Below, one piece after another: positions 18,997 through 55,026 of a stretch of DNA of 64,000 nt (positions within the stretch are counted from its first letter, which is position 1; every line of letters begins with the position of its first letter). The position numbers and the translations under genes are program-made. The DNA is from Clostridia bacterium (GTDB lineage Bacteria > Bacillota > Clostridia > Oscillospirales > Acutalibacteraceae), in NCBI GenBank assembly GCA_017461235.1, contig JAFTYU010000030.1:1-64000 (forward strand), read 5' to 3'. Under the pieces are notes generated by a model. It saw nothing but the letters and a program-made list of their open reading frames with translations. It searched no databases and was not told the DNA's origin.

Positions 18997-19024
18997 TTGA
19001 AAAATTACAGCTTTATGTTATAAT
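18997..19024 (+). promoter_or_regulatory. Promoter of the MFS transporter
   Basis: TTGAAA (18997-19002), 16 bases, TATAAT (19019-19024), 33 bases before the start codon. Confidence 0.7.
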
Positions 19025-19057
19025 TCATTTTAAGTTTTTATAAAGGAAGTACATACA

Positions 19058-20567: not shown

Positions 20568-20595
20568 TTGACAAAAAACGTAATTTGAGTATAAT
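20568..20595 (+). promoter_or_regulatory. Promoter of the T-box/aspS-gatC operon
   Basis: Consensus TTGACA (20568-20573), 16 bases, TATAAT (20590-20595), a few bases before the T-box stem I. Confidence 0.88.
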
Positions 20596-20602
20596 ACTGT
20601 GT

Positions 20603-20820
20603 GTAGAGACTCGGCTTTTGTGGAAAGTCTGTCAGGGAGAACGCGTCGGCGACTGAAAGCGCGTTTGAGATGAGTAGTAAGCTCGGGAACACTCTATTGG
20701 CTACATTAAACTCAATATTAAAAGAGGATGTATTTATACATCAATGCGGGTGGCACCGCGGGTTGACTTTTAGTTTACTCGTCCCGGGAATATGAAAATA
20801 TTCCCGGGCGTTTTTATTTT
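20603..20820 (+). promoter_or_regulatory. T-box riboswitch, predicted asparagine specifier (AAC)
   Basis: A transcription-attenuating leader that senses uncharged tRNA. The T-box core GGGTGGCACCGCGGG is at about 20748-20762 and its partner CGTCCC at about 20780-20785; the alternative terminator is the stem CCCGGGAATAT / ATATTCCCGGG (20783-20808) followed by T runs. Stem I closes with AGAG (20605-20608) and CTCT (20692-20695). Directly before the closing helix, the 3' strand of the specifier loop reads GGGAACA; the codon AAC (20688-20690) followed by the customary purine points to tRNA-Asn. This fits the downstream genes, which make Asn-tRNA(Asn) by amidation. The family identification is strong; the specifier is inferred by hand folding. 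Confidence 0.92.
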
Positions 20821-20843
20821 TTAGGATATTAGGAGGTTTTATT

Positions 20844-37400: not shown

Positions 37401-38047
37401 GACAGACTCTCGCAATATCGAAAAGCATAGTTACCGATACTCGTTACACTATCAGGAATTGTGATTTCAGTCAAACTTTCACAAGAAAAAAATGTATATT
37501 GACCGATACTTTTTATACCACCGGGTATTACTACCTTTGTCATATTATAGCAACCAGAAAAAGCATAATCGCCTATATAACTCACACTATCCGGAATCTC
37601 GACAGACTTAAGTTGATAGCAACCGTTGAAAGACTCTTCACCTATGCTTGTTACACTATCCGGAATCACAACACCTGTTAATTCCGAACAGTAATAGAAA
37701 GCAAATGCACCAACAGTTGTTACACTATCCGGAATTACAACTGATTTCAGACTTAAACACATTTCGAAAGCATAGTCACCAATAGCGGTTACCGGAAGTC
37801 CGTTATACTTCGAAGGAATAACTAAAGCCACCGTATCAGAGTTGTCTAAACCTCCTGTATGACCGGAAACATAATAACTTTTACCATCAGAATTCAGCTT
37901 ATAAACAACGGAAAAAGTTTCTTCTGAGTACGCTTTGGCTATAAAAAGAGAGCTGAAGTCAAGTTCACCGACCCCGACAATGACTGAACCGAAAATGATA
38001 GTTAAAGTCAAAAGACTTGACAAACATTTTTTTAATGGTTTTCTCAT
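34415..38047 (-). CDS. Giant secreted BspA-type leucine-rich-repeat protein with dockerin-like C-terminus
   Basis: A 1210-residue exported protein. The N-terminus MRKPLKKCLSSLLTLTIIFG is a signal sequence with a run to about residue 38. About 45 copies of the 23-residue LRR_5 (BspA/Treponema) unit follow, of the form SVxSIGxYAFSxCxSLxSVxIPD, interrupted by irregular segments near residues 360 and 590. After residue about 1040 comes a beta domain, and the end (about 1150-1210) is a type-I dockerin-like pair: DTDGDSVCDVLDCALVER and NSNGDDVVDANDYQSIVNKAL, with Ca-binding-loop Asp/Asn residues. LRR_5 proteins mediate adhesion or binding at the cell surface; the dockerin suggests attachment to a cohesin scaffold. 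Substrate unknown. Confidence 0.87.
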   Translation of the reverse strand: MRKPLKKCLSSLLTLTIIFGSVIVGVGELDFSSLFIAKAYSEETFSVVYKLNSDGKSYYVSGHTGGLDNSDTVALVIPSKYNGLPVTAIGDYAFEMCLSLKSVVIPDSVTTVGAFAFYYCSELTGVVIPDSVTSIGEESFNGCYQLKSVEIPDSVSYIGDYAFSGCYNMTKVVIPGGIKSIGQYTFFSCESLTEITIPDSVTSIGNYAFRYCESLSSVVIPDSVTSLGKYVFQDCKSLTSISFSSGITRIPDYVCSGCTNLTSVVIPSTVTAIGTYAFQNCSSLISISIPSSVTSIESYAFSKCKVLSSVTIPDSVESIGSSAFSYCEKLTSITIPDSVTSINTPVFQGCIALTSIDVGENNPSYSSVDGIMFDKNRTTILQYPVGKTSETFVVPDYVTKIAQGAFSSCVNLKSISFSDNSKITDEWAFNNCTSLVSIDLPDCITSIPGIAFINCTSLTDIVIPAGVTEIDNYAFENCTSLTSITIPGSVKEITYQAFKDCVNLSEVKMSEGISEIGYETFFNCASLMSITIPSTVTTIKTRAFSDCTNLVSITLSDNVTKISCDAFDRTGYLDNVNNWINGALYIGKHLIKGNSSYLDNTTGTCEIIQGTVTIADRAFYSCAGFKTIVIPDSVTHMGDSAFSKCTDLKTVTIGDGLMHLGYSAFNGCEKLETAILSDSLLEISGYAFADCSNLKNLTIGKNVESIGYRAFRNCKALETFTMPDSIKNIASAVFDNCTSLTGVYITNLKAWCNIVFKNSNSNPLYYAKKLYINGELVTDIVIPDGVTSIGDYAFYNCDPLASVTISSTVESIGESSFAGCDGLLSISNLKNVKSIGSSAFSACSGLASIMFGEGLTIISTNTFYGCTSLRSVEIPDSVIYIDNYAFYKCTGIESVIIGDGVETIGIYAFGNCAGIQSVVLGNKLKSIGYNAFENCESLKSISIPDSVTVIYNNAFKNCINLEAVALPDNIAGIYSYVFSGCSSLKTIAIPTGVTGIYGYAFSGCTSLKTVAIPNSVTSISGYAFGDCTSLETVSIPDSVTSINETAFNGFTGTIYCAENSTAHSFAVKKGYDYELVNIFATGNSFIDYDGLTIKTSVENCSDITELLSVASSSRIVVDYGSQNDGVEVLGTGTVISVYEGDTYIGDFVLIVDGDTDGDSVCDVLDCALVERTSNGNTTLTGAYNLAANSNGDDVVDANDYQSIVNKALEA

Positions 38048-41500: not shown

Positions 41501-41722
41501 CAGTATAAATCCCCTTGTTTTACAGATACTAACAGTACAAATTTGTAAAGCAAGGAGATTGTTATATATTATGAAAGCAACTGAAATAGTTCGTAGAATA
41601 GATGTTCGCAGTATAATAATACAAAAGCCTTGAAAGCCGCATAAACACCAGGGTTTTCGCCGGTTTGTCCCATTCAACGTATTGGTGTCAAAACAGGGTT
41701 TTTCGGCGATTTTAGAAAGGAG
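41501..41722 (+). repeat. SpoVT-leader scar, copy A (leader, 20-codon stub, CGCATAAA element)
   Basis: Bases 41501-41570 are a near-identical copy of the leader of the intact SpoVT-like gene at 53609 (about six differences in 100 bases through the twelfth codon). The inverted repeat 41510-41524 / 41544-41558 covers the ribosome site AAGGAG. The stub 41571-41633 reads MKATEIVRRIDVRSIIIQKP and stops. Bases 41634-41722 hold the second conserved element, CGCATAAA...GGGTTTT...TTGGTGTCAAAA...GGGTTTTT, also found in copy D, and end with AAAGGAG but no following start codon. The stub is unlikely to encode a functional protein. Confidence 0.8.
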
Positions 41723-41798
41723 AAGAATTACATTCTAAATTTGCGTCAGAAATCCATTGACCTGAGCAGCTAAAACTAAATATTCAAGCTGTCACAAA

Positions 41799-41826
41799 GT
41801 CGGATGAGTTTTATGCCTCGTCCGGC
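41799..41826. terminator. Possible hairpin terminator downstream of copy A
   Basis: Imperfect ten-base stem GTCGGATGAG / CTCGTCCGGC with an eight-base loop and only a short T run. Apart from copy A, this hairpin and the TetR promoter, I see nothing in 41723-41958. Confidence 0.4.
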
Positions 41827-41864
41827 ATTTCTATGTATAAATATAAAGAATTTTCAAAAACGTA

Positions 41865-41893
41865 TTGCATTTTCGTAGTATGCATACTATAAT
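41865..41893 (+). promoter_or_regulatory. Promoter with embedded 14-bp palindrome upstream of tetR-like gene
   Basis: TTGCAT (41865-41870), 17 bases, TATAAT (41888-41893). The spacer and the first two bases of the -10 box form the perfect palindrome TAGTATGCATACTA (41876-41889), a good candidate operator for the TetR-family product. Confidence 0.7.
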
Positions 41894-41958
41894 AGTAACA
41901 TAAACTTTCGAGATAACGGATTTTTAACGTACATAAGATGACAGGAGGTAATATAAGC

Positions 41959-42669
41959 GTGATACGAGTAGATAGAAAAGAACTTACCCGCAGTGAGATT
42001 GTTCGGGTTGCGGCGAACTGTTTTTTGAATGACGGTTATACCAAAACGACAGTAAACTCTATGTGCAAGAAATTAAATATGAGTCCCGGCAATATGACCT
42101 TTCACTTTCCTACGAAGGAGCATATGCTTGCAGAGCTTGTGGATATGCTCTGCAAGTATCAGTGGAAGCTGATGGAGGACGAAGCCAAGGACGGCTACAG
42201 TTCTATTATGGCGATCTGTCTGGAACTGCTGACCATTGCTTCTGCCTGTGAGCAGGATGAGGTAGCAAAGGATTTCTTCATATCGTCCTATCGAAGCGAA
42301 ATGTGTATGGAGCATATTCGGAAGAACGATACAGAGCGAGCCAAAGAGGTATTTAAGGAATACTGCCCCGACTGGACAGATGAATATTTCTCGGAAGCAG
42401 AAACCTTGGTATCGGGTATTGAGTATGCTGTATTTTTCACCACTTCCGACTCTGCACCGTTAGACATTCGTGTGGCGGGAGCACTCAGAACGATACTATC
42501 GATCTATAACGTTCCTAAAGAGATTCGAGACGAGAAGATTAAAAAGGTGCTTTCAATGAATTATCAAAAGCTCGGTCTTGATACCTTAAGGAAGTTCCGA
42601 GAGTACGTGGACGAAACCACCGAGCAAGCTCTTTTTGATTTGCTGAAACGAAAACAAATCGCACAATAA
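41959..42669 (+). CDS. TetR/AcrR-family transcriptional regulator
   Basis: A 236-residue regulator. The HTH domain spans about residues 8-55: RSEIVRVAANCFLNDGYTKTTVNSMCKKLNMSPGNMTFHF cited in parts, with TKTTVNSMCKKLNMSPG as recognition region and FPTKEHML after it. The C-terminal ligand domain is all helical and not assignable. I start at the GTG at 41959 behind AGGAGG; the ATG at 41938 would overlap that ribosome site. The gene is 61 bases upstream of the surface-protein gene, which it may control. Richer use of CTG/GTG codons than flanking housekeeping genes hints at transfer. Confidence 0.87.
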   Translation: MIRVDRKELTRSEIVRVAANCFLNDGYTKTTVNSMCKKLNMSPGNMTFHFPTKEHMLAELVDMLCKYQWKLMEDEAKDGYSSIMAICLELLTIASACEQDEVAKDFFISSYRSEMCMEHIRKNDTERAKEVFKEYCPDWTDEYFSEAETLVSGIEYAVFFTTSDSAPLDIRVAGALRTILSIYNVPKEIRDEKIKKVLSMNYQKLGLDTLRKFREYVDETTEQALFDLLKRKQIAQ

Positions 42670-42730
42670 TATAACTATTGAAATACACGTCGAGAGCCGA
42701 CTTCTATAATCCCTATATGGAGGAAACGAT

Positions 42731-45145
42731 ATGAAAAAGAAAAATCTATTAACAAATCGCATACTCATCATTGCGTTGGTGCTGGTGATGGTAGCAGGTA
42801 TGCTGCCTGTGACTGCCTTGGCGGCAGAGGAAGAGGTGAAGTACGCTGTCTGGATTGGCGGTGAAGAGTTTACCTCAGAAAAGCTCATCATACAAGGAGA
42901 TACCGGCACAGCAACATACGATCCGAACACAAAAACGCTGACTCTGGATAATTACACCTATACCGGTGATGGGCTGGATGAGGATTGGCTTAGTGTGCTT
43001 ATTTGCGCTTATGACGATTTGAACATCGTGCTGAAGGGCGAAAACAAGCTGATCAGCACCTGTGACTGTCATAGCTACTGTTACGGAATTTATAACGGAA
43101 ACGGATTTACCACCATCATCGGCGAGGACGCACAAAGCGACTCTCTGCTGGTGCAATCCAAAGGCGAACGGCAAAGCGTGGGAATCTTCACGTTTTCAAA
43201 GGGAATCCGCGTGGAAACTTGCACACTTACTGTCAAAAGCGCAGTGGAAGGCGACTCAAATATTGCAATGTATCATAGAGGCGAAACCTTCTTCCGCAAC
43301 TGCACGGTCGATGTTTTCTGTGCAAATGCCGAGGGAGTGTCATATGGTATCTTTGTAACAAACGATATCAATATGGAGGAAAGTACCGTTACGGTTTCGG
43401 CTGCAGGCAGCGAGGCAATCATCGGTAAAATCAATCTAATCTATCCCGGCGGTTATGCGTGGAAGGTCAGCCGTGATGTTGAATTCACCACAGAACCATT
43501 TGCTTATAATCAAGAGAGTTATGTTGCAATCAAGCCGGAAGCCTTTATGGCAACCTGGACCGACGGAGAAGGTGCTTCTTATGAAAAAACATTCCGATAC
43601 GGCGAAGTGATCCCCCTTCCTACCAGCACCTTTTTTGAAGAGACCTTCCGCAGAGGCGGCTACACCCTGACAGAGTGGCAGGGCTATACCGAGGGTATGA
43701 CAATGCCCATGGGTAGTGTGACCTTTACCGCGGTGTATACGCCCAATCAATACACCGTCACGTTTGATCCCAACGGCGCAGAAGCCATCGACCCGCTTAC
43801 CGTCATTTACGGAGAGAAATACGGCACTTTGCCTTCTTCGGCAATTACCGGTCTGTCTGGTGGCAACAAAAACTGGTATCTTGTGGATGCCGATGGGAAT
43901 GTTACTGACACAAACATCAAAAACCTGAGTAAGGTAACAGTAGCAAGGGATCACAACCTATTTATAAAACGCAATGTGCTTGCTCCGACTGTCAACATTG
44001 CGCTCAGTGTACCGGGCGGTCTTTCCGATAGCTATCAGTATTACATCTCCGGTGCATCACAGCGAGTGTTAACTGCCACCGTGGGCAATCAGAATGCCGA
44101 TATTTTAGATTACACCTATCAGTGGTACAAGGACGGCATGCTTATAGAAGGCGCAACCTCCAATGTGCTTACCCTTGACGGTAATGTGTCTGACAGCGGC
44201 ACCTACAAGGTGGAGGTCACTGCAACGCTGAAGGATGGTACGGGCATCGTGGTAACGAATTCTTCAGCCACCGGCTCTAAGGAGCAGAAAGTCAAGATCC
44301 TGCACGCCACCAATACATTAAGCTACGATGCCAACGGCGGAGAGGGCGGTCCAACCGCAAATTATACGGGTGGAACAACAGCGACAGTATCGGAGGATAC
44401 ACCTACCCGTGAGAATTATATTTTCCAAGGCTGGAACACGAAGGCAGACGGCAGTGGAGAAAGCTATGAAGGCGGAGATACCTACACCTTCCGAAACGAT
44501 AACGGCAATGGTGGCTGCACTGTGACGCTCTATGCACAGTGGAAGGGTGAAAACAGGACCGTTACCTACATGATTGACGGTGAGATATTCAAAACCGATA
44601 CCGTTGAATATGCCAAGGATGCTGTATTACCTGAGATTCCTCAAAAGGACGGTTATACCGGTATATGGAATCACGATGGCAAGAATATCACCGTTGACAC
44701 AGTGATTAGTGCGGTTTATACCATCAACGAGTACACCATTACCTTTATGGACGAAAACGGTGTTTACAAGACCTTAACCGTAAAGCACGGTGAGCCGGTT
44801 ACAATGCCCGATGTTCCTATAAAAGATGGTTATACGGTTACTTGGGAAACCACCATTGACAAAGCAACCGGTGATGCTATTGTTAATGCGGTATATACCG
44901 AAATCCCGAAAACCGACACACCAAACTCTACGAACCCTGACACACCAAGTTCTACGAAACCCAACACAGAAAGCTCTATAGAAACCAACACAGAAAGCTC
45001 TATAGAAACCAACACACCAGGTTCTCCGAAAACCGGAGATAACAGCAATATGATGCTGTGGTTCGCTCTCCTTCTTGCAAGTGTCACAGGTTTTTTCGGC
45101 ATCACTCTATATGACCGCAAAAGAAAAATAGAGAATAAAAGATAA
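42731..45145 (+). CDS. Wall-anchored surface protein with InlB-type B repeats and an Ig-like domain
   Basis: An 804-residue exported protein. Residues 1-32 are a signal peptide (ILIIALVLVMVAGMLPVTALA). A beta-helix-like region follows (about 40-270), then InlB B-repeat (Flg_new) units near residues 285-345, 530-590 and 600-705 (VTFDPNGAEAI, LSYDANGGEGGP, YTITFMDENG, each ending in AVYT or YAQW), with an Ig-like domain between (about 415-520, YTYQWYKDGMLIEGATS and SDSGTYKVEV). The C-terminus has a Thr/Ser/Pro linker, the sorting motif SPKTGD, a hydrophobic helix and a basic tail, so a sortase should anchor it. Codon use is more CTG/GTG-rich than its surroundings. Confidence 0.87.
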   Translation: MKKKNLLTNRILIIALVLVMVAGMLPVTALAAEEEVKYAVWIGGEEFTSEKLIIQGDTGTATYDPNTKTLTLDNYTYTGDGLDEDWLSVLICAYDDLNIVLKGENKLISTCDCHSYCYGIYNGNGFTTIIGEDAQSDSLLVQSKGERQSVGIFTFSKGIRVETCTLTVKSAVEGDSNIAMYHRGETFFRNCTVDVFCANAEGVSYGIFVTNDINMEESTVTVSAAGSEAIIGKINLIYPGGYAWKVSRDVEFTTEPFAYNQESYVAIKPEAFMATWTDGEGASYEKTFRYGEVIPLPTSTFFEETFRRGGYTLTEWQGYTEGMTMPMGSVTFTAVYTPNQYTVTFDPNGAEAIDPLTVIYGEKYGTLPSSAITGLSGGNKNWYLVDADGNVTDTNIKNLSKVTVARDHNLFIKRNVLAPTVNIALSVPGGLSDSYQYYISGASQRVLTATVGNQNADILDYTYQWYKDGMLIEGATSNVLTLDGNVSDSGTYKVEVTATLKDGTGIVVTNSSATGSKEQKVKILHATNTLSYDANGGEGGPTANYTGGTTATVSEDTPTRENYIFQGWNTKADGSGESYEGGDTYTFRNDNGNGGCTVTLYAQWKGENRTVTYMIDGEIFKTDTVEYAKDAVLPEIPQKDGYTGIWNHDGKNITVDTVISAVYTINEYTITFMDENGVYKTLTVKHGEPVTMPDVPIKDGYTVTWETTIDKATGDAIVNAVYTEIPKTDTPNSTNPDTPSSTKPNTESSIETNTESSIETNTPGSPKTGDNSNMMLWFALLLASVTGFFGITLYDRKRKIENKR

Positions 45146-45160
45146 ATAGATACAACCTTT

Positions 45161-45194
45161 AAAGGGTGATGACAAATTAAGTCATCGCCCTTTT
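45161..45194 (+). terminator. Terminator of the tetR/surface-protein operon
   Basis: Stem AAAGGGTGATGAC / GTCATCGCCCTTT, with one mismatch (A-C), followed by a T run. Confidence 0.85.
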
Positions 45195-45361
45195 CACATC
45201 TCGATTTGACACTTTAAAAAACAATCGGAAATTCTACTCATAATTTCTACAAAAAGTGTGGTGCTACAAAGAACAAAAAAGCACAACTCGTCCCATATGA
45301 GGACATTGGTAGTGTCGTACTTTTTGGATGGAACGAGATTTGATTTGAGCAAAACGAAAAA

Positions 45362-45530
45362 AACCGGAAAACCGCATAAATACTGGGTTTTGGGCACATT
45401 TTTAGAGTAGAGAAAAGGAGTAAAATATATGAAAGCAACTGGAATAGTTCGTAGAATGGAGGATTTAGGCAGGGTTGTTATTCCTAAAGAGATCAGAAGG
45501 AAATTAAGAATCCGTGAAGGTGACCCTTAG
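45362..45530 (+). pseudogene. SpoVT-leader scar, copy B (CGCATAAA element then truncated spoVT 5' end)
   Basis: Here the order is reversed. The element ACCGCATAAATACTGGGTTTTGGGC (starts near 45371; cited only for its key parts CGCATAAA and GGGTTTT) comes first, then AAAAGGAG, then a 33-codon start of the SpoVT-like gene (45429-45530). It reads MKATGIVRRMEDLGRVVIPK, continues as in the intact gene to EGDP, and stops at TAG where the intact gene has TTG. The remainder of the gene is absent. The stretch 45195-45361 holds no supported gene. Confidence 0.82.
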
Positions 45531-45607
45531 GATACAACATTGACACATTTCGACAAGTTTTGCTTTTCTATACATAGTGTTGTAAAAAGATATAAGGTAT
45601 AAAAAAG

Positions 45608-45634
45608 AAAGCGGAGTGAAATTCACTCCGCTTT
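45608..45634. terminator. GCGGAGTG hairpin overlapping the end of a minus-strand gene
   Basis: Stem AAAGCGGAGTGAA / TTCACTCCGCTTT. The stop codon (TGA, 45623-45625) and last codons of the adjacent minus-strand gene lie inside the stem. Related to the GCGAGGTG stems nearby. Confidence 0.7.
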
Positions 45635-46564
45635 ACCTTTGGGCTCCATTACGATAGTATAGATTGTTTCGGTATAGTCATCCCCTGACAAATATGTTAT
45701 ATTGATATTTCCTTTTCTGTTAAAACCACCACTAACTACAAAATCTGCTACAACAGGTGAAACATTTTCCAACCTATATTCTCTATAGTATTGGTCTTTA
45801 TCAAAAATATCCTCTACTATTATAAAGTGTTCGCCATCTCTATAATCAGCATAAACAACACAATCATCCTCTACATCAATAACATAATAAAATATTTTTG
45901 AAATTTCGCCGGTTTCCAAATCATAAAACTTCGCATAATTTGTTGACAATCCAGTCCCCATTTGAACAGATATACCGACAACATCGGTATCTACACAGAG
46001 TCTTTCAGGCCGTGGTCTTAAATTGTTTTCATAATCCAGAATTTTACCTTTATAGTCAGTAATTTCGTATGAATATGTTTTATCTTTTTCTTGAGTAATC
46101 ATTGAATGGGTAATCAAATATGAATTCCATAATTCATATCGGTTTATACTCTTAATGGAGCCACAATACTGACCAAGATGACCACAATCATCCTTATCAA
46201 AAATGCCCTCAACAATAACATACTCACCATTATACTGTGTAAGCTCCTCAAAAAAGCCTGTGTTTTCGCCCAGTTCAATCCAAATGGAATTACCTATACT
46301 ATATTTTAAATCTTCTTTGCTGAGAGTTATACAACACTTTTCAAAGCCATAACTGCTTACACCAATTACTCTGACAAATTCACCATCGTATTTTTCAGGA
46401 GTAGTAATAAGTTGCAACATAGTTGCATCTTTGGCATTTTGGTTGTCAGAACCGGACTTTCCTTTGTTATTATAACTTTTAATACCAAAGAACACTACAA
46501 AAACAATTGCTACCACGATAAAAACAGAAAGAGAAATAGTTAATATTCGTTTTTTGTTTTTCAC
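45623..46564 (-). CDS. Membrane-anchored protein with OB-like domain, function unknown
   Basis: A 313-residue protein started at a GTG with GGCGGTG upstream. A basic N-terminus and one transmembrane or signal-anchor segment (about residues 7-29, LTISLSVFIVVAIVFVVFFG) are followed by an extracellular part. Residues about 48-135 (ITTPEKYDGEFVRVIGVSS, GEYVIVEGIFDKDDCGH) have the strand pattern of an OB-fold nucleic-acid- or ligand-binding domain. The C-terminal 150 residues are beta-rich, with YDLETGEISKIFYYV-type strands. No enzyme motif is visible. It lies between scars B and C. Confidence 0.62.
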   Translation of the reverse strand: MKNKKRILTISLSVFIVVAIVFVVFFGIKSYNNKGKSGSDNQNAKDATMLQLITTPEKYDGEFVRVIGVSSYGFEKCCITLSKEDLKYSIGNSIWIELGENTGFFEELTQYNGEYVIVEGIFDKDDCGHLGQYCGSIKSINRYELWNSYLITHSMITQEKDKTYSYEITDYKGKILDYENNLRPRPERLCVDTDVVGISVQMGTGLSTNYAKFYDLETGEISKIFYYVIDVEDDCVVYADYRDGEHFIIVEDIFDKDQYYREYRLENVSPVVADFVVSGGFNRKGNINITYLSGDDYTETIYTIVMEPKGKAE

Positions 46565-46604
46565 AAAATCACCGCCTTTAATTTATCATATCATATTTAA
46601 TTTC

Positions 46605-46800
46605 AAAAGTAAATTCACACAGTATGAATTCCCTTTAATCACAAATACTAACAACATAATTTGACTTTAAGGAGAAAGATATATATGAAAGCAACAGGTA
46701 TTGTACGTCGCATAGAGGCTGGTGTTATAATAACACCAAAGCCAGAAAGACCGCATAAACACTAGAGTCTTGGTTGGATTTTATCCGGCTCAACTTACGA
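46605..46800 (+). repeat. SpoVT-leader scar, copy C
   Basis: The leader 46605-46684 shares AAAAGTAAATTC...CAGTAT with copy D and the loop AATACTAACAACA; its arms pair imperfectly around AAGGAG (46668-46674 region). The stub 46685-46765 reads MKATGIVRRIEAGVIITPKP and ends PHKH before TAG. The CGCATAAACAC element start lies inside the stub's end (46752-46764). The part after the element has decayed compared with A and D. Bases 46565-46918 otherwise hold only the hairpin at 46817. Confidence 0.75.
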
Positions 46801-46816
46801 AAAAGAAAATTTATAG

Positions 46817-46847
46817 CAACAGCGAGGTGAATTTCACCTCGCTGTTG
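46817..46847. repeat. CAGCGAGGTG hairpin of the array
   Basis: Stem CAACAGCGAGGTGA / TCACCTCGCTGTTG with a three-base loop. There is no clear T run on either strand, so termination is uncertain. It lies 71 bases beyond the stop of the TIR-LRR gene. Confidence 0.65.
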
Positions 46848-46918
46848 TGGCATGTTATAGTGTTTATTTATGGCATACAAGGGAAAGGGGTTAAAGATAA
46901 AGATGTAAACATGGCATT

Positions 46919-49900
46919 TTATAGCCAATGAATCGTCACCTGCGACAAGTCAACCCCGCTGAAAATACGCTCAAGATCATCCTCAAACCGACGAGAAATG
47001 GTGATCTCTTTGAGTCCCGTGCAACCGCCAAAAGCATCATTGCCGATGGTTTTGACCGAAGCGGGAATGGTGACCGATGCCAAAGATGAGCAACCATCAA
47101 AGACCCACCGTCCGATTGTTGTCACCCCATCAGGGATGGTGACCGACACCAAAGATGTGCAACCCTCAAAAGCACTCTCTTCAACGGTCGTCACACCGAC
47201 AGGAATCGTGATCGCCATCAAGCTATTACAATCTTTAAAAGCGCTATCCTTGATCACCTGACAACGCTTGGATATGGTGATCGAAGTAAGAGAGGTGCAA
47301 CTCTTAAAGGCGCTCATACCGATTTCCCTCACATTGTCGGGGATGGTAACCGATGCCAGAGAGATGCAACTCTTAAAGGCGCTCATACCGATTTCCCTCA
47401 CATTGTCGGGGATGGTAACCAATGTCAGAGAGGTGCATTCCGTAAAAGCACCTCCTTTGATTGTTGTCACACTGTTGGGGATGGTGATCGATGTGAGAGA
47501 GGCGCAACCCTCAAAGGCGCACCGTTCGATTTTTGTCACACCGCCGGGAATAATGATTGATTCCAAAGAGGGACAACCACAGAATGCCTTCTCCCCGATT
47601 GTCCTTACACCGTCAGGGATGGTGATTGAACTCAGAGAGGTGCAACCCTCAAAGGCGCTTTCTTCGATGGTCGTCACACTGGCGGGAATCGCGACTGATG
47701 TCAGAGAGGTGCATTCCATAAAAGCACCTCCTTTGATTGTTGTCACACTGTTGGGGATGGTGATCGAACTCAAAGAGGGACAATCCCTGAAGACCCACCG
47801 CTTAATTTCTATCACACCGTCGGGGATAATAGCCGACGTCAGAGAGGTGCAGCCGTGAAAGGCCCATTCTCCGATTATTGTCACACCGTCAGGAATGGCG
47901 ATTGATATCAGAGAGGCGCATCTCGAAAAGGCATTCCCACCGATTATTGTCACGCTATCAGGCAGAGTAACCGATGACAGAGCAGTGCAACGTTCAAAAG
48001 CGCTTGAATCAATTGTCGTCACGCCATCGGGGATAGTAATTGATTGCAAAGAGATACAATCTTGGAAGGCCCCCCATCCTATTTTTTTCACATCGTCGGG
48101 AAAGGCGATCTGTTCCACAAGCTTACGCCTGTTTTCGGGAAGCGTATCCTTTGTAACCGTCACCGTCCCGGGCGGTACGGCGAAAACTTTGTCTTCTCCT
48201 CTCACGTCGGCATATTGCACAACTGCCTCGGGCACCCCTAGATAGGTGGCAGAATATCCCGGTGGACAATTGATAATGCGGTACAAAAGCCGACAATCGG
48301 AAAATACGCCTTCTCCGATTTCCGTCACATCGTTAGGGAGGGTAACCGATACTAGCGATGTGCAACTTTCAAAGGCACTTCGTCCGATTGTTATCACGCC
48401 GTTTGGAATCGTGACCGATGTCAAAGAGGTGCAACCCTCAAAGGCACTCACTTCAATTATCCTCACACTATCGGGGATGTTGACTGATGTCAGAGATATA
48501 CAGTCCTTAAACGCTCTCAATCTAATGATCTTCACACTATCGGGAAAGACAATCTGTTCCACGAGCTTACGTCTGTTTTCAGGAAGCATATCCTTTGTAA
48601 CCGTCACCGTCCCGGGCGGTACAACGAACACTTTCTCCTCCTCTTTCACATCGGCATATTGCACGACCTCCTCTGGCGCCCCCAGATAGGAAGCGGAATA
48701 TATCAGTGGGCAGTTAATGATGCGGCGCAAAAGCCAACAATCTGCAAACGCGCTCTCTCCGATTTCCGTTACACCGTCTGGGATGATAACCGACACCAGC
48801 GAAGTGCAACTTTTAAAAGCACATCGTCCGATTGTTATCACACCGTTTGGAATCGTGACCGATGCCAAAGAGGTGCACCCCTCAAAGGCACTCGCTTCAA
48901 TTACCCTCACACTATCGGGAATGTTGACCGATGTCAGAGAGATACAACCCCGAAAAACACTTGCTCCGATTTCTGTCACACCGTTGGGAATCGTAATCGA
49001 TACCAAAGAGATGCAATCCTTAAAGGCCCATTCTCCGATTTTCGTCACACCATCGGGAATCGTAATCGATGCCAAAGAGGCACAATCAGCAAAAGCCATC
49101 CAATCAATTGTTGTCATACCATCAGGGATGGTAACTGATATCAGCGAGGTGCAACCCCAAAAAACACTCTCTTCGATTTTCGTCACACCGTTAGGGATGA
49201 TGACAGACGTCAAAGAGGTACAACCCCAAAAGGCTCCCCTCTCTATTATTGTCGCACTATCTGGAATGGTGACCGTTGTTAGAGAAGAGCATTCCATAAA
49301 GGCTCTCTCTCCGATTGTTGTCACACTGTTGGGAATGATAACCGATGCCAACGCAGTACAACCCCGGAAGGCCTTCTCTCCGATTGTCATCAAACCATGA
49401 GGAATCGTGACCGATATCAAAGAGGTGCAACCCCGAAAAGCATCCATTCCTATTGTTGTCACATTATCGGAAATGGTGACCGCTGTCAGAGAAGTACAAT
49501 CGACAAAAGTCCTCTTTTCGATTGTCGTCACGCTGTCTGGCAAACAAATGGTGCTGTGAAAATACAAAAATGCCCTTTTGGTAACAAACAACCCATTCTC
49601 CCGCTTCCATCGTTCATCGACTGTTGCGAAATTTTCAGGAATATATACACATCGCACATGACGATCGTTGATAGCAAGCGGTTCGATGTCTTTTTTATCC
49701 GTCGGCGAGAAAAACAATCCGCACATTTTCTTGCAGGATTTTTGCGGCAGGACGGTTTCCAGTCGTTCTTTATCATACGGAGCGGCGACAACGCCAGTAT
49801 ATTCACCGCCGAGTTCGCTGAACATCTCGTGGGAATACAGCCCGAGTTCATCCTCAAACGCCGTCGGCATACGTCCAAACACACCTTGACCACATTCTTT

Positions 49901-51667
49901 CCACGACTTCGCCTCGGCTATGTTAAAGCAACGGGGATAGATATCTTCGCTGTCGGTTGCCATTGTATCGCCCGTGAAGAACAATTCGCAGAGTCCGCGG
50001 CGCACGCCGACAAGATCGGCACTCACAAACAGCGCTTCGCCGTTCACGCGATCGGTAATCTCGGCAGCGGTATTGAAACGTCCGAAGATCCAGCACACAT
50101 CGCGCGTAAGAGCAAGCGCTTTGGCAAAGTATGGCTTGTCTTTTATGGTGTCTAGTGTCAACAATAAAGGCTCATAGAGTTCATATTCCGGCACATACCA
50201 GAACAACGGCCCATACGGCGGATAGGTACCATCAGTGGATTTTTGTATAATATCCCGCAATAGAGCGCACTGCGCCTGTTCCTTGTGTTCCGACATCTCT
50301 TTGCACGCTTCGAAAAAGAGCGTATACTCGTAAATACCCTGGTTCATCAGTAAATTATATAATTGTGTGATGACATCCTCTGTCAGACGATCATCCACAT
50401 ATATAAGAAATGCTTTAAGCGTTTCTGTGAAATACTCATCAGCATAATGCGAAAACAACTCAAGTAGTTTCTTTTTGGATTTTATCGTTCCTCTTTTTGA
50501 GAAAATCCGCTTGAAATAGTGCTCAGCCAGCCGCTTGCTCCACTTTTGAACAGAATCAACATCGCGCGCCACGCCGACGCCGTCTTTATGCATACGGATC
50601 AGTTTTTCCATTGCCTCAGCAAGATCCTCTTCGGCGGCAGTTTCAATCAATTCAACTGCTCGTTCGCGATCCACTTCCATATCGATACCTTCGAGATATG
50701 CAAGACCGATCAAAAACGCATGTTCAGGAGTATCAACGACATCGTATTTGATTTTTTTAATCGCTGCCATCAATCGCTCGTGAAATTTCACATCATCATA
50801 ACGGATATACTCGTCTGCTTCTAACCGTGACGGTGCATCTTTGCCGGCATCTTCCATTTCGACGGCAAAGATTTGTGTCCCTTTTTCAGAACGTTTTCTT
50901 TTGGCTTCGGGTAATTCGTTAGAAATGACAAAATTGTCTACTTCTTTGCCTTTTTCGTCAAGTCTCTTTTTAAAGAGCTGTTTTGTAACAAGCAAGGTGA
51001 ACAGTTTGCAGTCGTCCAACGCTTTTTCAATATTTGCTTTGAAGCTTTCGCCCGGTGTCAGGAATTCGTCAAACCAGATTGCGAAGTCACGGCAATCGGG
51101 AATGCTGTGAATTAGGCGCATCAGTGTATTGGCGTAGGCGCGGTCTACTTTTCGATAACTCAAAAAGATATAGGCACAAAACGCATGTCGAATGCGATCT
51201 GCCAACTCTTTGCTGATCAGCACCGATTCCAGATACTTTTTGAGTTTTTCTTCATAGGGAATTTCGGTTTGATCATTGCTGAGCGGATTCAGATATTGCA
51301 ACTCACCGAATCTTGCAGAATACAACTCATCATCCACCGCTTCCCTCAAGATCGGCAACACAGGAATATGCTTATCCAATGCATACGGAATATCCTCGTC
51401 CATCGCGCGGTTGGGTGTTGTCAGTAGTTTTTTTGTGATAGGAATCACGAACAAGTTACTTCTCCCGAGGTCGAGATCTTTTTGATTGCCTACAATTTTC
51501 TCGGACATATCTTCGGTATAATAAATAGCACAATCATGTGTCTTGAAAATATCTCTGCAAACAATTTCAAAGCATGCATCAAAATCATCGGGATGGCAAG
51601 TAAACCATACACGAGGTTTTTTGTCCACATCTTCATTATTTTTTGGCTTTATGTTAATTGTTACCAT
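46919..51667 (-). CDS. TIR-like/Sel1/leucine-rich-repeat giant protein
   Basis: A 1582-residue protein with no signal or membrane segment, so probably cytosolic. Residues about 18-150 are a TIR-like domain (RVWFTCHPDD, then PYALDKHIPVLPIL). Residues about 162-300 are a second, clearer TIR domain: AYIFLSYRKVDRAYANTL, WFDEFLTPGESFKANIEKAL, LFTLLVTKQLF, and SNELPEAKR, where the Glu is placed like the NADase catalytic Glu. About 310-390 is a Sel1-type repeat (AFLIGLAYLEGIDM, EAMEKLIRMHKDGVGVARD). A unique region runs to about 700. Some 36 BspA-type 23-residue LRR units fill about 707-1560, interrupted by two copies of an INCP...YSA linker. TIR plus repeats suggests a sensor/effector, perhaps in phage defence; this is inference. 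GAGGAG precedes the ATG. Confidence 0.83.
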   Translation of the reverse strand: MVTINIKPKNNEDVDKKPRVWFTCHPDDFDACFEIVCRDIFKTHDCAIYYTEDMSEKIVGNQKDLDLGRSNLFVIPITKKLLTTPNRAMDEDIPYALDKHIPVLPILREAVDDELYSARFGELQYLNPLSNDQTEIPYEEKLKKYLESVLISKELADRIRHAFCAYIFLSYRKVDRAYANTLMRLIHSIPDCRDFAIWFDEFLTPGESFKANIEKALDDCKLFTLLVTKQLFKKRLDEKGKEVDNFVISNELPEAKRKRSEKGTQIFAVEMEDAGKDAPSRLEADEYIRYDDVKFHERLMAAIKKIKYDVVDTPEHAFLIGLAYLEGIDMEVDRERAVELIETAAEEDLAEAMEKLIRMHKDGVGVARDVDSVQKWSKRLAEHYFKRIFSKRGTIKSKKKLLELFSHYADEYFTETLKAFLIYVDDRLTEDVITQLYNLLMNQGIYEYTLFFEACKEMSEHKEQAQCALLRDIIQKSTDGTYPPYGPLFWYVPEYELYEPLLLTLDTIKDKPYFAKALALTRDVCWIFGRFNTAAEITDRVNGEALFVSADLVGVRRGLCELFFTGDTMATDSEDIYPRCFNIAEAKSWKECGQGVFGRMPTAFEDELGLYSHEMFSELGGEYTGVVAAPYDKERLETVLPQKSCKKMCGLFFSPTDKKDIEPLAINDRHVRCVYIPENFATVDERWKRENGLFVTKRAFLYFHSTICLPDSVTTIEKRTFVDCTSLTAVTISDNVTTIGMDAFRGCTSLISVTIPHGLMTIGEKAFRGCTALASVIIPNSVTTIGERAFMECSSLTTVTIPDSATIIERGAFWGCTSLTSVIIPNGVTKIEESVFWGCTSLISVTIPDGMTTIDWMAFADCASLASITIPDGVTKIGEWAFKDCISLVSITIPNGVTEIGASVFRGCISLTSVNIPDSVRVIEASAFEGCTSLASVTIPNGVITIGRCAFKSCTSLVSVIIPDGVTEIGESAFADCWLLRRIINCPLIYSASYLGAPEEVVQYADVKEEEKVFVVPPGTVTVTKDMLPENRRKLVEQIVFPDSVKIIRLRAFKDCISLTSVNIPDSVRIIEVSAFEGCTSLTSVTIPNGVITIGRSAFESCTSLVSVTLPNDVTEIGEGVFSDCRLLYRIINCPPGYSATYLGVPEAVVQYADVRGEDKVFAVPPGTVTVTKDTLPENRRKLVEQIAFPDDVKKIGWGAFQDCISLQSITIPDGVTTIDSSAFERCTALSSVTLPDSVTIIGGNAFSRCASLISIAIPDGVTIIGEWAFHGCTSLTSAIIPDGVIEIKRWVFRDCPSLSSITIPNSVTTIKGGAFMECTSLTSVAIPASVTTIEESAFEGCTSLSSITIPDGVRTIGEKAFCGCPSLESIIIPGGVTKIERCAFEGCASLTSITIPNSVTTIKGGAFTECTSLTLVTIPDNVREIGMSAFKSCISLASVTIPDNVREIGMSAFKSCTSLTSITISKRCQVIKDSAFKDCNSLMAITIPVGVTTVEESAFEGCTSLVSVTIPDGVTTIGRWVFDGCSSLASVTIPASVKTIGNDAFGGCTGLKEITISRRFEDDLERIFSGVDLSQVTIHWL
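47296..47433 (-). repeat. 69-bp tandem duplication of one LRR unit
   Basis: Two adjacent 69-base units (one 23-residue LRR) share a 56-base stretch without a difference, in contrast to the more diverged neighbouring units, so this is a recent duplication inside the TIR-LRR gene. Confidence 0.85.
48100..48700 (-). repeat. Duplicated linker-LRR segment, 444-bp period
   Basis: The linker beginning TCTGTTCCAC at 48109 recurs at 48553. Both copies encode an INCP-YSA-YLG-PE-VVQYADV linker followed by VPPGTVTVTKD and ENRRKLVEQI. The offset of 444 bases (148 codons) keeps frame. Confidence 0.8.
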
Positions 51668-51770
51668 AACTTTGACTCCTCATGTATATCAATTATAGTT
51701 ATATTATTTTAGCGGTTATCAAGACATATATAGTTCAATATTTTTTGTTTATTATATCACAACCAAACTG

Positions 51771-52001
51771 AAAAGTAAATTCGTGCAGTATAAATCTCCT
51801 CCAATTACAAATACTAACAACACAATTTGTAATTTAAGGAGAAATGTATATATGAAAGCAACTGGGATTGTTAGAAGAATAGAGGAATGCGTTATAATAG
51901 GGCAAACCGTTGAAATGCGCATAAATACAAGGGTTTTACTGGTTTGCATCACTGAACGCATTGGTGTCAAAATCGGGTTTTTGGGCAGTTTTTATACATA
52001 G
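51771..52001 (+). repeat. SpoVT-leader scar, copy D
   Basis: The leader 51771-51851 again carries CAGTATAAATCTCCT, the loop AATACTAACAACAC and AAGGAGA. Its arms (51795-51810 / 51826-51841) differ from copies A and the intact gene but still pair, for example AATTACAAA with TTTGTAATT. The stub 51852-52001 begins MKATGIVRRIEE and then reads through the CGCATAAATAC element and the TTGGTGTCAAAA...GGGTTTTT part for 49 codons. Bases 51668-51770, upstream of the TIR-LRR start, hold only that gene's ribosome site and AT-rich sequence. Confidence 0.8.
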
Positions 52002-52002
52002 T

Positions 52003-52031
52003 AAAAGCGAGGTGAAATCCACCTCGCTTTT
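52003..52031. terminator. GCGAGGTG hairpin with ATGTCCC box
   Basis: Stem AAAAGCGAGGTG / CACCTCGCTTTT directly after scar D. It is followed by AATGTCCC and TTTTATC, matching the sequence after the hairpin at 40837. The next gene starts 75 bases later. Confidence 0.72.
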
Positions 52032-52106
52032 AATGTCCCATTTTTATCTCATATATCAGTTTATAATTTAAGAGCAACTATAAAACTGATGAAAAGAGGT
52101 TTGAAT

Positions 52107-53528
52107 ATGGGGTCTTGTGATTATATTATTGAAAACGGTATCCTTAAGAAATATGTCGGTGCCGGCGGTAACATTGTTATACCGGACGGGATCAGGAAAA
52201 TTGGCGAGCGTGCATTTATGGACCATACTAAAATCACCGGTATTATCTTTCCAAAGGGCCTGACAGAGATTGGCGATTGGGCGTTTTCCGGTTGCACCGG
52301 GATTACCGATATTGTGTTACCCGAAGGTGTAGCGGCCATCGGAGGTCGCGCTTTCGACAATTGCCGGAATCTGAAAACAATTGCATTTCCTGCCAGCATC
52401 TCTCTTTTGGGTAGCGGCCTTTTTACAAGGTGTAGGAGTATTAACCGCCTTTCCTTTTCCCAAGACAATCCGCAATTTTGCTCCGACGGGAATTGTATCA
52501 TTGACAAGGAAACAAACACCCTACTTATGGGATGTTCTTCCTCCACAATTCCAAACTATGTGAAAAAGATTGCAAGTTTTGCTTTTGATAGCTGTGAAGA
52601 GGTTATGAAGATCAACATTCCGCAGAGCGTTGAGAAAATTGATGCCAAGGCCTTTATCGACTGCACCGGCCTTACAAGTATAACAATCCCGTCCAGTATC
52701 AGGGAAATTGGATTTTGCGCCTTTATGGATTGCTCCGGACTTGAACAAATCTCTGTTGCAGAAAACAATCCGCGCTATCATTCCAATGGTAATTGTTTGA
52801 TTGAATCGGCAACAAGCACCGTGCTGGTAGGATGTAAAAACTCCATAATACCGGACTATATTTCCTGTATTGGATGCAGGGCTTTTGAAAACTGCGAAGA
52901 GCTTACGAACATATCAATTCCCGATAGCGTTACAAACATCGAATTTGAAGCGTTTAGAAATTGCAAAAAACTTAATAATGTAATACTTCCTGATAAACTG
53001 AAAAGCATTGGCAACTGTGCATTTATGAATTGCGTGGAACTTTCAGAAATAACGATTCCTGCTAGTGTTACGAGTCTTGGCAATTTTGCCTTCGCTTTTT
53101 GCACAAAATTAAAAACCGTTACCATTCTGGATGGTTTATCAAGCATAAGCTATCACGCGTTTGGCGGATGCACGGAGTTGGAACGCATTACCATTCCGGA
53201 TAGTGTCACACATATCAGAAGATATGCCTTTATCGACTGCAAAGCGCTCGCAAGTATTACCATCCCCAGTAACATTACGAATATTGAAACCAAATCGTTT
53301 GATGGGGAGGAGACATCAAAAAGTTACCCTTACATCCCTTCCAATGCGCCCAGCATTGAATCGCATGCCTTTAAGGGCTGCCCAAAACTCAATACAATAA
53401 TAATTTCGAAAAATGTTGCCCATATCGATAAGAAATCATTCGGAAAAAGGCGTACCATTCACACACCGGCAGGAAGCTATGCCGCACAATATGCAAAGGA
53501 AAATAACATACCGTTTGTAGCAGAATAA
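52107..53528 (+). CDS. BspA-type leucine-rich-repeat protein without signal peptide
   Basis: A 473-residue protein made almost wholly of LRR_5 units of about 23 residues (IGERAFMDHTKITGIIFPKG, VTNIEFEAFRNCKKLNNVI and so on). Two longer units contain the insert NPxxxSxGNCLI / VLVGC (residues about 120 and 230), a variation seen in intracellular and surface BspA relatives. There is no signal peptide, anchor or effector domain, unlike its two LRR neighbours. The ATG at 52107 has AAAAGAGG upstream; an ATG six codons earlier is possible. It lies exactly between scar D and the intact SpoVT leader. Confidence 0.8.
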   Translation: MGSCDYIIENGILKKYVGAGGNIVIPDGIRKIGERAFMDHTKITGIIFPKGLTEIGDWAFSGCTGITDIVLPEGVAAIGGRAFDNCRNLKTIAFPASISLLGSGLFTRCRSINRLSFSQDNPQFCSDGNCIIDKETNTLLMGCSSSTIPNYVKKIASFAFDSCEEVMKINIPQSVEKIDAKAFIDCTGLTSITIPSSIREIGFCAFMDCSGLEQISVAENNPRYHSNGNCLIESATSTVLVGCKNSIIPDYISCIGCRAFENCEELTNISIPDSVTNIEFEAFRNCKKLNNVILPDKLKSIGNCAFMNCVELSEITIPASVTSLGNFAFAFCTKLKTVTILDGLSSISYHAFGGCTELERITIPDSVTHIRRYAFIDCKALASITIPSNITNIETKSFDGEETSKSYPYIPSNAPSIESHAFKGCPKLNTIIISKNVAHIDKKSFGKRRTIHTPAGSYAAQYAKENNIPFVAE

Positions 53529-53539
53529 AATTTAATACA

Positions 53540-53608
53540 CAGTATAAATCTCCTTGTTTTACAGATACTAACAGTACAAATTTGTAAAGCAAGGAGATTT
53601 TATATATT
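53540..53608 (+). promoter_or_regulatory. Leader of the SpoVT-like gene with inverted repeat over the ribosome site
   Basis: AATCTCCTTGTTTTACA and TGTAAAGCAAGGAGATT form a 17-base inverted repeat (one G-T pair) around a loop with ATACTAACA. The 3' arm contains the ribosome site AAGGAG. TATAAA at 53543-53548 could be a -10 box; if so the transcript would start within the 5' arm and the inverted repeat might act as a DNA operator instead. The arms covary with copies C and D. Confidence 0.65.
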
Positions 53609-54148
53609 ATGAAAGCAACAGGAATTGTTCGTAGAATAGATGATTTAGGAAGGGTTGTTATTCCTAAAGAAATCAGAAGAACTTTAAGAATTCGTGAAGG
53701 TGACCCGTTGGAGATTTTTACGGCGAGTGACGGGGAAGTTATTTTTAAAAAATACTCGCCAATGGGTGAATTGTCGGAGTTTTCTGGTCAATACTCGGAC
53801 ATTTTAAGCCGAACGGCGGATTTGCCCGTTATTATAACCGACCGCGACCATGTTATTTCTGTTTCGGGGCTTCCTAAAAAAGATTATCTTGAACGCCACA
53901 TTTCAAAAGAGCTTGAAGAAATTATGGAAAACAGGGATAAATATATCAAAACCCGTGATAACGACCGCCTTTACCCTATCGACAACTGCGATTTAGAGGC
54001 GCTCACGGCATTCCCCATAATTTCTGCCGGTGATATCGGCGGTGCGGTTATGTTTATAGACAACGGCGACTACACAAAACTCACCGACACGGAGGTTAAG
54101 CTTGCTCAGGTTGCGGCAACCTTCCTTGGCAAACAGATGGAAGAATAA
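53609..54148 (+). CDS. spoVT: SpoVT/AbrB-family transcriptional regulator (intact copy)
   Basis: A 179-residue regulator. Residues 1-50 are the AbrB/SpoVT swapped-hairpin DNA-binding domain: MKATGIVRRIDDLGRVVIPK, then EIRRTLRIREGDPLEIFT. Residues about 55-178 are a GAF-like domain as in Bacillus SpoVT (LPVIITDRDHVISVSG, FPIISAGDIGGAVMFID). Length matches SpoVT. SpoVT controls forespore genes in spore formers; whether this is the orthologue or an accessory paralogue cannot be told here. It is the only complete copy among five 5' ends in the window and terminates the array. Confidence 0.88.
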   Translation: MKATGIVRRIDDLGRVVIPKEIRRTLRIREGDPLEIFTASDGEVIFKKYSPMGELSEFSGQYSDILSRTADLPVIITDRDHVISVSGLPKKDYLERHISKELEEIMENRDKYIKTRDNDRLYPIDNCDLEALTAFPIISAGDIGGAVMFIDNGDYTKLTDTEVKLAQVAATFLGKQMEE

Positions 54149-54270: not shown

Positions 54271-55026
54271 ATGGCATCACGTGACGAACGCACCGAAGAC
54301 CTTGCTAAAAATTTAAAAATATATGTGAGCGATGCGCATATTTTCACATCCGACGCCATTATTTTAGCCGACTTTTGCGCCCCACGCCACAAGGATAAGT
54401 GTTGCGACCTGGGAACAGGCAACGGTATTATTCCCCTTCTGTGGCTAAGAGATTTTCAACCGAAAGAGATCGTCGGCGTTGAGTTGAGCGAAAGTGCTGT
54501 TAAACTGATGCACAAAACCATTGAGCTCAACTCCCTTGAAGGTGCTTTCACACCTATCCACTGTGATTTAAGAGATTTAAAAGGCGTTTTGCCCAACGAA
54601 TATTATGATGTGGTGAGTATCAATCCGCCGTATAAAAAAATCGGTACGGGCATAGTCAACGAAGGTGAAGATTACAAAAACGCTCGGCACGAATTCACCT
54701 GCACGCTTGATGATGCCGCTTGCGCCGCCGCCAGACTTTTAAAATTCGGCGGAAAATTCTGTATCTGCCAACGACCTGAAAGGCTACCCGATATTTTCGC
54801 GGCTATGCGAAAGTTTAAAATTGAGCCTAAATCAATGCGCGAAGTCATTCAGCGCCTTGGCAAGGAGCCGAGCCTTGTACTCGTGGAAGGCAAAAAGGGC
54901 TCTGCCCCGGGGTTCAGAATACAGCCGCCGCTTATTCTTGAGAATACAAACGGCAGCTACACCCCGGAAGCAGAACAATTATTTCATTCATATAAATACA
55001 AGGAGTTGTTACATAATGAAGTATGA
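54271..55026 (+). CDS. tRNA1(Val) (adenine37-N6)-methyltransferase-like protein
   Basis: A 251-residue SAM-dependent methyltransferase of the TrmN6/YabB type. The SAM loop is DLGTGNGIIPLLWL (about residues 45-58), the acidic motif EIVGVELSESAV follows, and the N6-adenine signature SINPPYKK (NPPY) is at about residue 127. Ends with a substrate-binding region. In E. coli the homologue methylates A37 of tRNA-Val; other Firmicutes members are less studied. AAGGAG precedes the ATG. The last 11 bases overlap the FAD-protein gene. Confidence 0.87.
   Translation: MASRDERTEDLAKNLKIYVSDAHIFTSDAIILADFCAPRHKDKCCDLGTGNGIIPLLWLRDFQPKEIVGVELSESAVKLMHKTIELNSLEGAFTPIHCDLRDLKGVLPNEYYDVVSINPPYKKIGTGIVNEGEDYKNARHEFTCTLDDAACAAARLLKFGGKFCICQRPERLPDIFAAMRKFKIEPKSMREVIQRLGKEPSLVLVEGKKGSAPGFRIQPPLILENTNGSYTPEAEQLFHSYKYKELLHNEV

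What the first reader, a model, noticed from the sequence alone, without database searches (positions are those of the whole stretch)
41501..54148. Array of truncated SpoVT-gene 5' ends separating accessory genes, ending at one intact copy
Seen directly: five plus-strand copies of the same 5' end (starts 41571, 45429, 46685, 51852, 53609), each beginning MKATxIVRR; only the last continues into a full SpoVT/AbrB-like regulator. Between them lie unrelated genes: tetR plus a sortase-anchored protein, an anchored OB-like protein, a TIR/Sel1/LRR giant, and an LRR protein. Copies in the same orientation with the intact gene at one end are what repeated site-specific insertion at the 5' end of one gene would leave, each event regenerating the target start. 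It resembles a cassette array using a regulator gene as attachment site. No recombinase is in the window, so tandem duplication with decay is the main alternative.
Basis: partly seen in the sequence, partly recalled or inferred. Interest (0 to 1): 0.82.

Follow-up and report, generated by a model that had tools for sequence, protein, structure and literature searches.

The report
Cassette island at a sporulation gene
The repeated gene stubs look like scars where conjugative elements cut into the start of the spore regulator gene spoVT, and the foreign genes stacked between the scars appear to be swapped between gut bacteria, making one spore gene a widespread gene-exchange point.

Summary
Observation confirmed: four truncated spoVT 5' ends (41571, 45429, 46685, 51852) precede one intact spoVT (53609), all on the + strand, separated by unrelated genes. 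Such arrays are common in the window's family and in other Clostridia MAGs. Of 147 loci holding copies, 122 have a true stub and 53 have stub(s) plus an intact gene (47 distinct); the intact gene is last in all 53.

What the stubs are: most (type A) look like left attachment-site (attL) scars. Two conjugative elements with three tandem large serine recombinases, one an IMG/VR record and one in the window's own GTDB family, split spoVT at codon 11 (GA core). Their left arm is homologous to the sequence following the stubs. No such recombinase was found in the window genome or in 157 loci scanned.

Cassettes (102; median 1.7 kb) move singly: one is 99.3% identical in two hosts whose adjoining spoVT is about 80% identical. 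Two resolved right-hand breakpoints lie at the start codon, not at GA, so present shuffling looks like homologous exchange between repeated modules. Many cassettes end in a sigma-G-like promoter plus start, keeping spoVT readable. How spoVT was first restored is not shown.

The parts
41501..41602 (+). stub 1 (type A): promoter-like leader (inverted repeat, SD) plus spoVT codons 1-11, ending in the GA core
   Evidence: 95% identical to the intact gene's leader and start over 104 nt
41603..41720 (+). element-derived left arm (P' arm) after stub 1, with CGCATAAACACCAGGGTTTT at 41638-41657; right limit approximate
   Evidence: homology of type A arms to the ICE arm
41938..45145 (+). cassette 1: TetR regulator (41938-42669) and 804-aa surface-type protein with Flg_new repeats (42731-45145)
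   Evidence: related cassette in L183, 88-90% identical in parts
45373..45527 (+). stub 2 (type B, with type C leader): CGCATAAATACTGGGTTTT leader without the sigma-G-like motif, then spoVT codons 1-33
45528..45634 (+). type B arm and terminator-like hairpin (45608-45634)
45623..46564 (-). cassette 2: 313-aa protein, no Pfam hit
   Evidence: related cassette in L220, 74% identical, behind a type A arm
46617..46716 (+). stub 3 (type A): leader plus codons 1-11
46717..46847 (+). type A arm (CGCATAAACACTAGAGTCTT at 46752-46771) and hairpin 46817-46847
46919..51667 (-). cassette 3: 1582-aa TIR_2 / LRR_5 protein
51786..51883 (+). stub 4 (type A): leader plus codons 1-11, GA core at 51882-51883
51884..52032 (+). 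type A arm (GGAATGCGTTATAATAGGGCAAACC..., CGCATAAATACAAGGGTTTT at 51918-51937) and hairpin 52002-52032
   Evidence: matched in many family genomes
52089..53528 (+). cassette 4: 479-aa LRR_5 protein
53540..53608 (+). leader of the intact gene: GTATA -17 nt- GATACTA (sigma-G-like), inverted repeat, SD
   Evidence: consensus in PMC3416734 passage
53609..54148 (+). intact spoVT (179 aa), last unit of the array and attachment target
54271..55026 (+). methyltransferase-like gene (named by eye), conserved downstream flank
   Evidence: 14 of 15 same-genus loci

Best explanation
The region is an accretion island at spoVT. Shown by sequence: conjugative elements carrying three tandem large serine recombinases sit in spoVT at codon 11 across a GA dinucleotide, leaving [spoVT promoter, start, codons 1-11] joined to the element's left arm. 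Type A stubs have this junction. Shown: the islands hold short cassettes without serine recombinases, and single cassettes pass between species. Inferred: most stubs are attL scars of past insertions by this element family. The rest of each element and its right junction were lost when homologous recombination with incoming DNA restored a complete spoVT and left a cassette between the old stub and the new promoter-start. Since then the repeated modules (promoter-leader-start and arm-hairpin) have acted as homology arms through which cassettes are swapped. Type B stubs (codon 33) are read as scars of a second element family at the same gene; no such element was found.
For: Two insertions with both junctions. 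IMG/VR record 2897530398_000009 reads ...CGCATCGA|CGATTAGGTTATAATAGG... at its left end and ...TACTTGACATAAAGGGA|CGATCTGGGACGG... plus the spoVT body at its right end, after three serine recombinases. G075, in the window's family, reads AATCGA|CTAATGCGTTATAATAGG followed by VirB4-like genes (by eye) on one contig. On another it has three recombinases, then TACTTGACACGTTCAGA|TGATTTGGGAAGG. In both elements and in window stub 4 the GA is followed by 8 nt and TTATAATAGG. 108 of 148 type A arms align to the ICE arm better than any of 2960 mononucleotide shuffles (max 20; observed median 24.5; reversed arms at most 14.5), and intact genes score at most 13. The arm at L245:123 matches the ICE arm exactly for its first 69 nt. 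Island behaviour: intact gene last in 53 of 53; variable upstream, fixed downstream flank; cassette order differs in close relatives L041/L044. Cassettes shared across species: L225/L278 99.3%, identity ending after ATGAAAGCAACGGG; L171/L181 94.5%, ending after ATGAAAGCAACAGG; L053/L242 98.3%, ending before the right leader. One cassette sits behind a type A arm in one genome and a type B arm in another, homology starting at ATACATAG or its variant (L169/L192, L172/L192). sigma-G-like motif in 56 of 69 intact leaders, against 18 of 228 stretches further upstream.
Against: No right junction read in the islands carries the P half of the site, so a plain attL-cassette-attR unit was not seen. G075's attL and attR lie on different contigs. 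Only two such elements were found; of 30 recombinase loci fetched, one borders spoVT. 40 of 148 type A arms do not exceed the shuffled maximum; type A is a class by exclusion and 14 of its 149 members lack both arm motifs I looked for, so scars of other elements may be among them. GA at the junction (141 of 149) is also the host's own codon 11, so it is not independent evidence. The motif CGCATAAACACTGGGTTTTT also occurs once away from spoVT in the window genome (C21:1042). A DNA-uptake route in these mostly uncultured bacteria is unknown. Only two right-hand breakpoints were resolved at base level. The link between leader type and codons 3-10 is weak.
Confidence: 0.68

Rival explanations
1. 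Site-specific cassette system: cassettes circulate as circles carrying spoVT promoter-start plus arm, and serine recombinases supplied in trans by a visiting element insert them at GA, as cassettes enter an integron or SCC elements enter rlmH.
For: Element and attachment site exist; copies in each locus point one way and the intact gene is last in 53 of 53; cassettes are small and no serine recombinase was found in 157 loci.
Against: In the two transfers with resolved right junctions, identity stops at codon 5, with 5 and 4 mismatches in the next 17 nt before GA. The reaction needed would be attL x attB, not attP x attB. The window genome has no large serine recombinase hit.
Confidence: 0.2
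2. Stubs are kept by selection as portable forespore (sigma-G) promoters that bring the cassettes into the sporulation programme.
For: GNATA-17-[ACG]ATAMTA motif in 79 of 149 type A and 13 of 18 type B leaders.
Against: The largest ORF points away from the stub promoter in 69 of 102 cassettes. Terminator-like hairpins follow three of the four window stubs. Motif retention is lower in type A stubs than in intact genes (56 of 69).
Confidence: 0.1
3. Tandem duplication of the spoVT 5' end followed by decay and chance gene gain.
For: Direct repeats in one orientation.
Against: Unrelated genes between copies; arms homologous to a mobile element; same structure with different cargo in many genera; near-identical cassettes in different species.
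Confidence: 0.02

Closest known systems
CIMEs and ICE/IME accretion islands of streptococci (PMC7563491, passages read)
   Same: Recombinase-free cargo units of similar size (1.2-13 kb there; 0.66-7.7 kb here), stacked beside one target gene that complete ICEs also use; recombination between elements proposed there too.
   Different: Here up to five stubs in one locus, mostly one gene per unit, a 5' target split inside the coding region, no right half-site seen, and a promoter-start module at many units' ends.
ICEs with a triplet of serine integrases (PMC4701971, passages read)
   Same: Three serine recombinase genes with Resolvase and Recombinase domains on an ICE.
   Different: Streptococcal triplets insert in hsdM, traG or mutT; the two elements here insert in spoVT.
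SCC elements at rlmH with Ccr serine recombinases (search listing only; otherwise recalled)
   Same: Serine recombinases, one chromosomal target gene, direct repeats between stacked units, units lacking recombinase.
   Different: SCC uses the 3' end of rlmH and leaves the gene whole; here the target is the 5' coding region.
Integron cassette arrays (recalled; PMC8876359 seen as search listing)
   Same: One-way array of short accessory gene cassettes with shared sites beside a fixed gene.
   Different: No integrase found between copies, attC-like folding not tested, and breakpoints that do not fall at one site.

Membership tests
CIME (decayed ICE/IME) | No recombination or conjugation genes of its own | tested here: inconclusive
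   No large serine recombinase hit in 157 loci; two tyrosine recombinase hits: L057 about 7 kb downstream of an intact gene, and L273 about 5.5 kb downstream of a lone stub, where it could lie inside an array. Conjugation genes were not systematically searched.
CIME (decayed ICE/IME) | Retains both flanking att sites of the parent element | tested here: not met
   Left junction like attL; right junctions read carry a spoVT start, not the P half seen in the ICEs. No separate search for P halves was made.
Triplet-serine ICE | Three tandem serine recombinases plus conjugation genes, site-specific target | tested here: met
   For the two spoVT-inserted elements, not for the window: Pfam on the three recombinases of the IMG/VR record (the first given as its first 466 aa), homology and position for G075; conjugation genes judged by eye.
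Integron | Tyrosine integrase IntI next to the array | tested here: not met
   HMM from 19 tyrosine recombinases: 2 hits in 157 loci, none shown to lie between two copies; own genome has two Phage_integrase genes, on other contigs.
SCC-type cassette | ccr-type large serine recombinase in the genome or island | tested here: not met
   PF07508 gives 0 hits in the window genome, which is 94% complete.

The most novel reading that the evidence does not exclude
Spore-forming gut Clostridia run an integron-like exchange island at spoVT: each cassette carries its own sigma-G promoter, ribosome site and start, so new genes can be stacked or swapped directly in front of an important sporulation regulator without harming it, seeded by serine-recombinase ICEs that target the gene.
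Probability: 0.35. Interest if true: 0.8.

Novelty: new variant of a known kind. Interest (0 to 1): 0.62.

Why it matters
It names a recurrent hotspot of gene exchange (defence, surface, regulatory and metabolic genes) in mostly uncultured animal-gut Clostridia and gives a sequence signature to find it. It ties the hotspot to an identifiable recombinase triplet, and it makes testable how an insertion inside a developmental gene can be tolerated. I found no paper on it: six searches with spoVT, integron-like cassettes or CIME accretion showed none in the rows listed (lists were cut at 10), in open-licence papers only.

Tried and rejected
Tyrosine recombinase: the 288-aa and 319-aa integrases of the own genome lie on contigs with no stub or arm-motif hit. 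The palindrome-like CGCATAAACAC core suggested a tyrosine site, but the linked elements use serine recombinases.

Crossover placing by correlation along the leader was uninformative: the gene body is saturated and there were only 8 close pairs.

A common repeat at both cassette ends (ATACATAG against ATATATG) gave about p=0.04 and was dropped.

Searches that found nothing: LSR3 relatives in genome contigs and in viral contigs beyond the source record; two arm patterns in viral contigs. One search found only the same record again. These scans use short exact words and are insensitive.

RNA-family search, structure prediction and covariation of the leader were not done.
Full report
OBSERVATION. 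The five starts are confirmed and are far beyond chance. The window is contig 12 of a 2.15-Mb, 43-contig genome, and the five copies are its only matches to the intact leader-plus-start at E<=1e-5. Stubs 41571, 46685 and 51852 keep a roughly 65-nt leader and codons 1-11, then enter a common arm. Stub 45429 keeps codons 1-33 and enters another arm; upstream it has a different leader. Hairpins follow stubs 2-4.

DISTRIBUTION. In 60 relatives, 42 match the leader-plus-start (this includes intact genes). Stub 4 matches 142 of 398 family genomes and 69 of 135 genera. Many of those rows are intact-gene leaders; reading the listed rows by hand, at least 40 genomes have matches running past the codon-11 junction, and the list was cut. 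A pattern of the arm found 76 stretches in GTDB genomes, all titled as MAGs (Oscillospiraceae, Clostridia, Lachnospiraceae and similar); 47 of the 76 titles name a ruminant gut (goat, sheep, cattle, buffalo, yak, deer; my count). 71 of the 78 arm sites in them follow a recognisable spoVT start; the other 7 have a damaged one. spoVT itself is found in 321 of 398 family genomes (E<=1e-30).

ARCHITECTURE. 147 loci with copies were examined. Leaving out 5 copies cut by a locus end and one unrelated AbrB gene (L073), 122 loci have a stub. 53 have stub(s) plus an intact gene, 47 of them distinct by sequence; the intact gene is last in all 53, and no locus has copies on both strands. 102 distinct stub-to-next-copy cassettes measure 659-7727 nt, median 1730. 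60 of 102 have exactly one ORF of 90 aa or more, and in 69 the largest ORF points away from spoVT. 101 of their proteins (one per cassette, under 1300 aa, so the window's TIR-LRR giant was left out) hit 90 Pfam families at E<=1e-5, the commonest in only 7 proteins. PADLOC hits include type I, II and IIG restriction-modification proteins. In the same genus, 14 of 15 loci with an intact gene keep the methyltransferase downstream, while the nearest upstream ORFs (70 aa or more, mechanical) of 13 loci with at least 0.5 kb upstream fall into 13 different clusters. L039 (63 nt upstream) and L043 (290 nt) were left out of the second count; L043 shares L041's cassette end. Close relatives L041 and L044 carry the TauE-like and ribokinase-like cassettes (named by eye) in different order.

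WHAT THE STUBS ARE. A scan of IMG/VR for the spoVT start gave 46 loci. 45 have ORFs of 81 aa or more, read as AbrB/SpoVT-type genes, and one was a 12-codon stub. It opens a conjugative element with a coupling-protein-like gene (by eye), and at the far end stand three tandem large serine recombinases, then the rest of spoVT from codon 12. A later search with the third recombinase found homologues in 44 of 398 family genomes (E<=1e-60). Of 30 loci fetched, one, the best hit (44% identity), borders spoVT: G075, which has three recombinases and then the gene from codon 12, and a stub followed by VirB4-like genes (by eye) on another contig. In both elements the common dinucleotide is GA of codon 11; 8 nt later comes TTATAATAGG, as in window stub 4. 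108 of 148 type A arms score above every shuffle against the ICE arm; 40 do not. Type A is a class by exclusion; 14 of its 149 members lack both arm motifs. I therefore read most type A stubs as attL scars. Type B stubs (18 copies) break at codon 33; no element was found for them.

HOW CASSETTES MOVE NOW. L225 and L278 share a cassette at 99.3%. Identity runs to the right through the next leader to ATGAAAGCAACGGG and then falls to about 80%. To the left it starts at the hairpin, with the arm itself about 78% alike. L171/L181 (94.5%) behaves the same way. L053/L242 (98.3%) starts mid-arm and ends before the right leader. In L169/L192 and L172/L192 the same cassette stands behind different arm types, homology starting at ATACATAG or its variant. 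Window cassette 2 matches L220 from the hairpin on, and cassette 1 matches L183 in parts. Breakpoints thus fall in several conserved modules, which fits homologous recombination; a GA-centred insertion would have carried codons 5-11 along. This rests on two resolved right junctions.

WHY SPOVT SURVIVES. 32 intact-gene leaders, picked by eye from 51 because they resemble each other, show GTATA (GAATA in L050), 17 nt without gaps, then [GA]ATAMTA. This matches the published sigma-G form (-35 GNATA, -10 CAWAMTA; dacF GTATA/AATAATA; Table 4 passage of PMC3416734). Over all copies the motif GNATA-17-[ACG]ATAMTA is in 56 of 69 intact leaders, 79 of 149 type A and 13 of 18 type B, and in 18 of 228 control stretches. 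A cassette ending in this leader brings spoVT a promoter, SD and start. A second leader (type C, as at window 45429), without the motif, occurs in 9 copies, none of them an intact gene (one search listed 11, two of which were false matches).

OPEN. How the right half of the ICE was lost and spoVT restored is inferred, not seen. The two elements leave the gene split; excision during sporulation, as in skin-like elements (recalled), is possible and untested.

Noticed in passing
window 45373-45428; L064, L072, L179, L236, L237, L246, L257, L259: Type C leader (CGCATAAATACTGGGTTTT, then GGCACATTTT.AGAGTA.AGAAAAGGAG before ATG) in 9 copies, none before an intact spoVT; its flank is about 90% alike in window and L246. 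Possibly another element's right end.
   Followed up: partly
L233, L241, L274, L275: GC-rich repeat-like sequence ending ...GGGCACC inserted near spoVT codon 3 of stubs, removing the start codon at similar positions in four genomes.
   Followed up: no
window 53546-53600 and 51795-51842: The spoVT leader is an inverted repeat whose right arm holds the Shine-Dalgarno sequence; possible translational control or operator.
   Followed up: no
L080:1042-1064 (window genome, contig 21): The motif CCCGCATAAACACTGGGTTTTT also stands alone near a contig end, next to GTGACAACGTTTTGACAACA repeats, away from spoVT.
   Followed up: no
L209-L210 (record positions 17934-21827): Three adjacent tyrosine recombinases, resembling a Tn554-type unit (recalled), nested inside the spoVT-inserted conjugative element.
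   Followed up: no
L057 about 7550-8663; L273 up to 847: Tyrosine recombinases: 371 aa about 7 kb downstream of an intact spoVT, and 282 aa about 5.5 kb downstream of a lone stub.
   Followed up: no
L245:1-123: Contig of MAG SIG467 ends inside an arm identical to the ICE arm for its first 69 nt, suggesting a related element broke the assembly there.
   Followed up: partly
window 34415-38047: 1210-aa minus-strand protein with many BspA-like leucine-rich repeats (judged by eye) near the island, similar in kind to cassettes 3 and 4.
   Followed up: no
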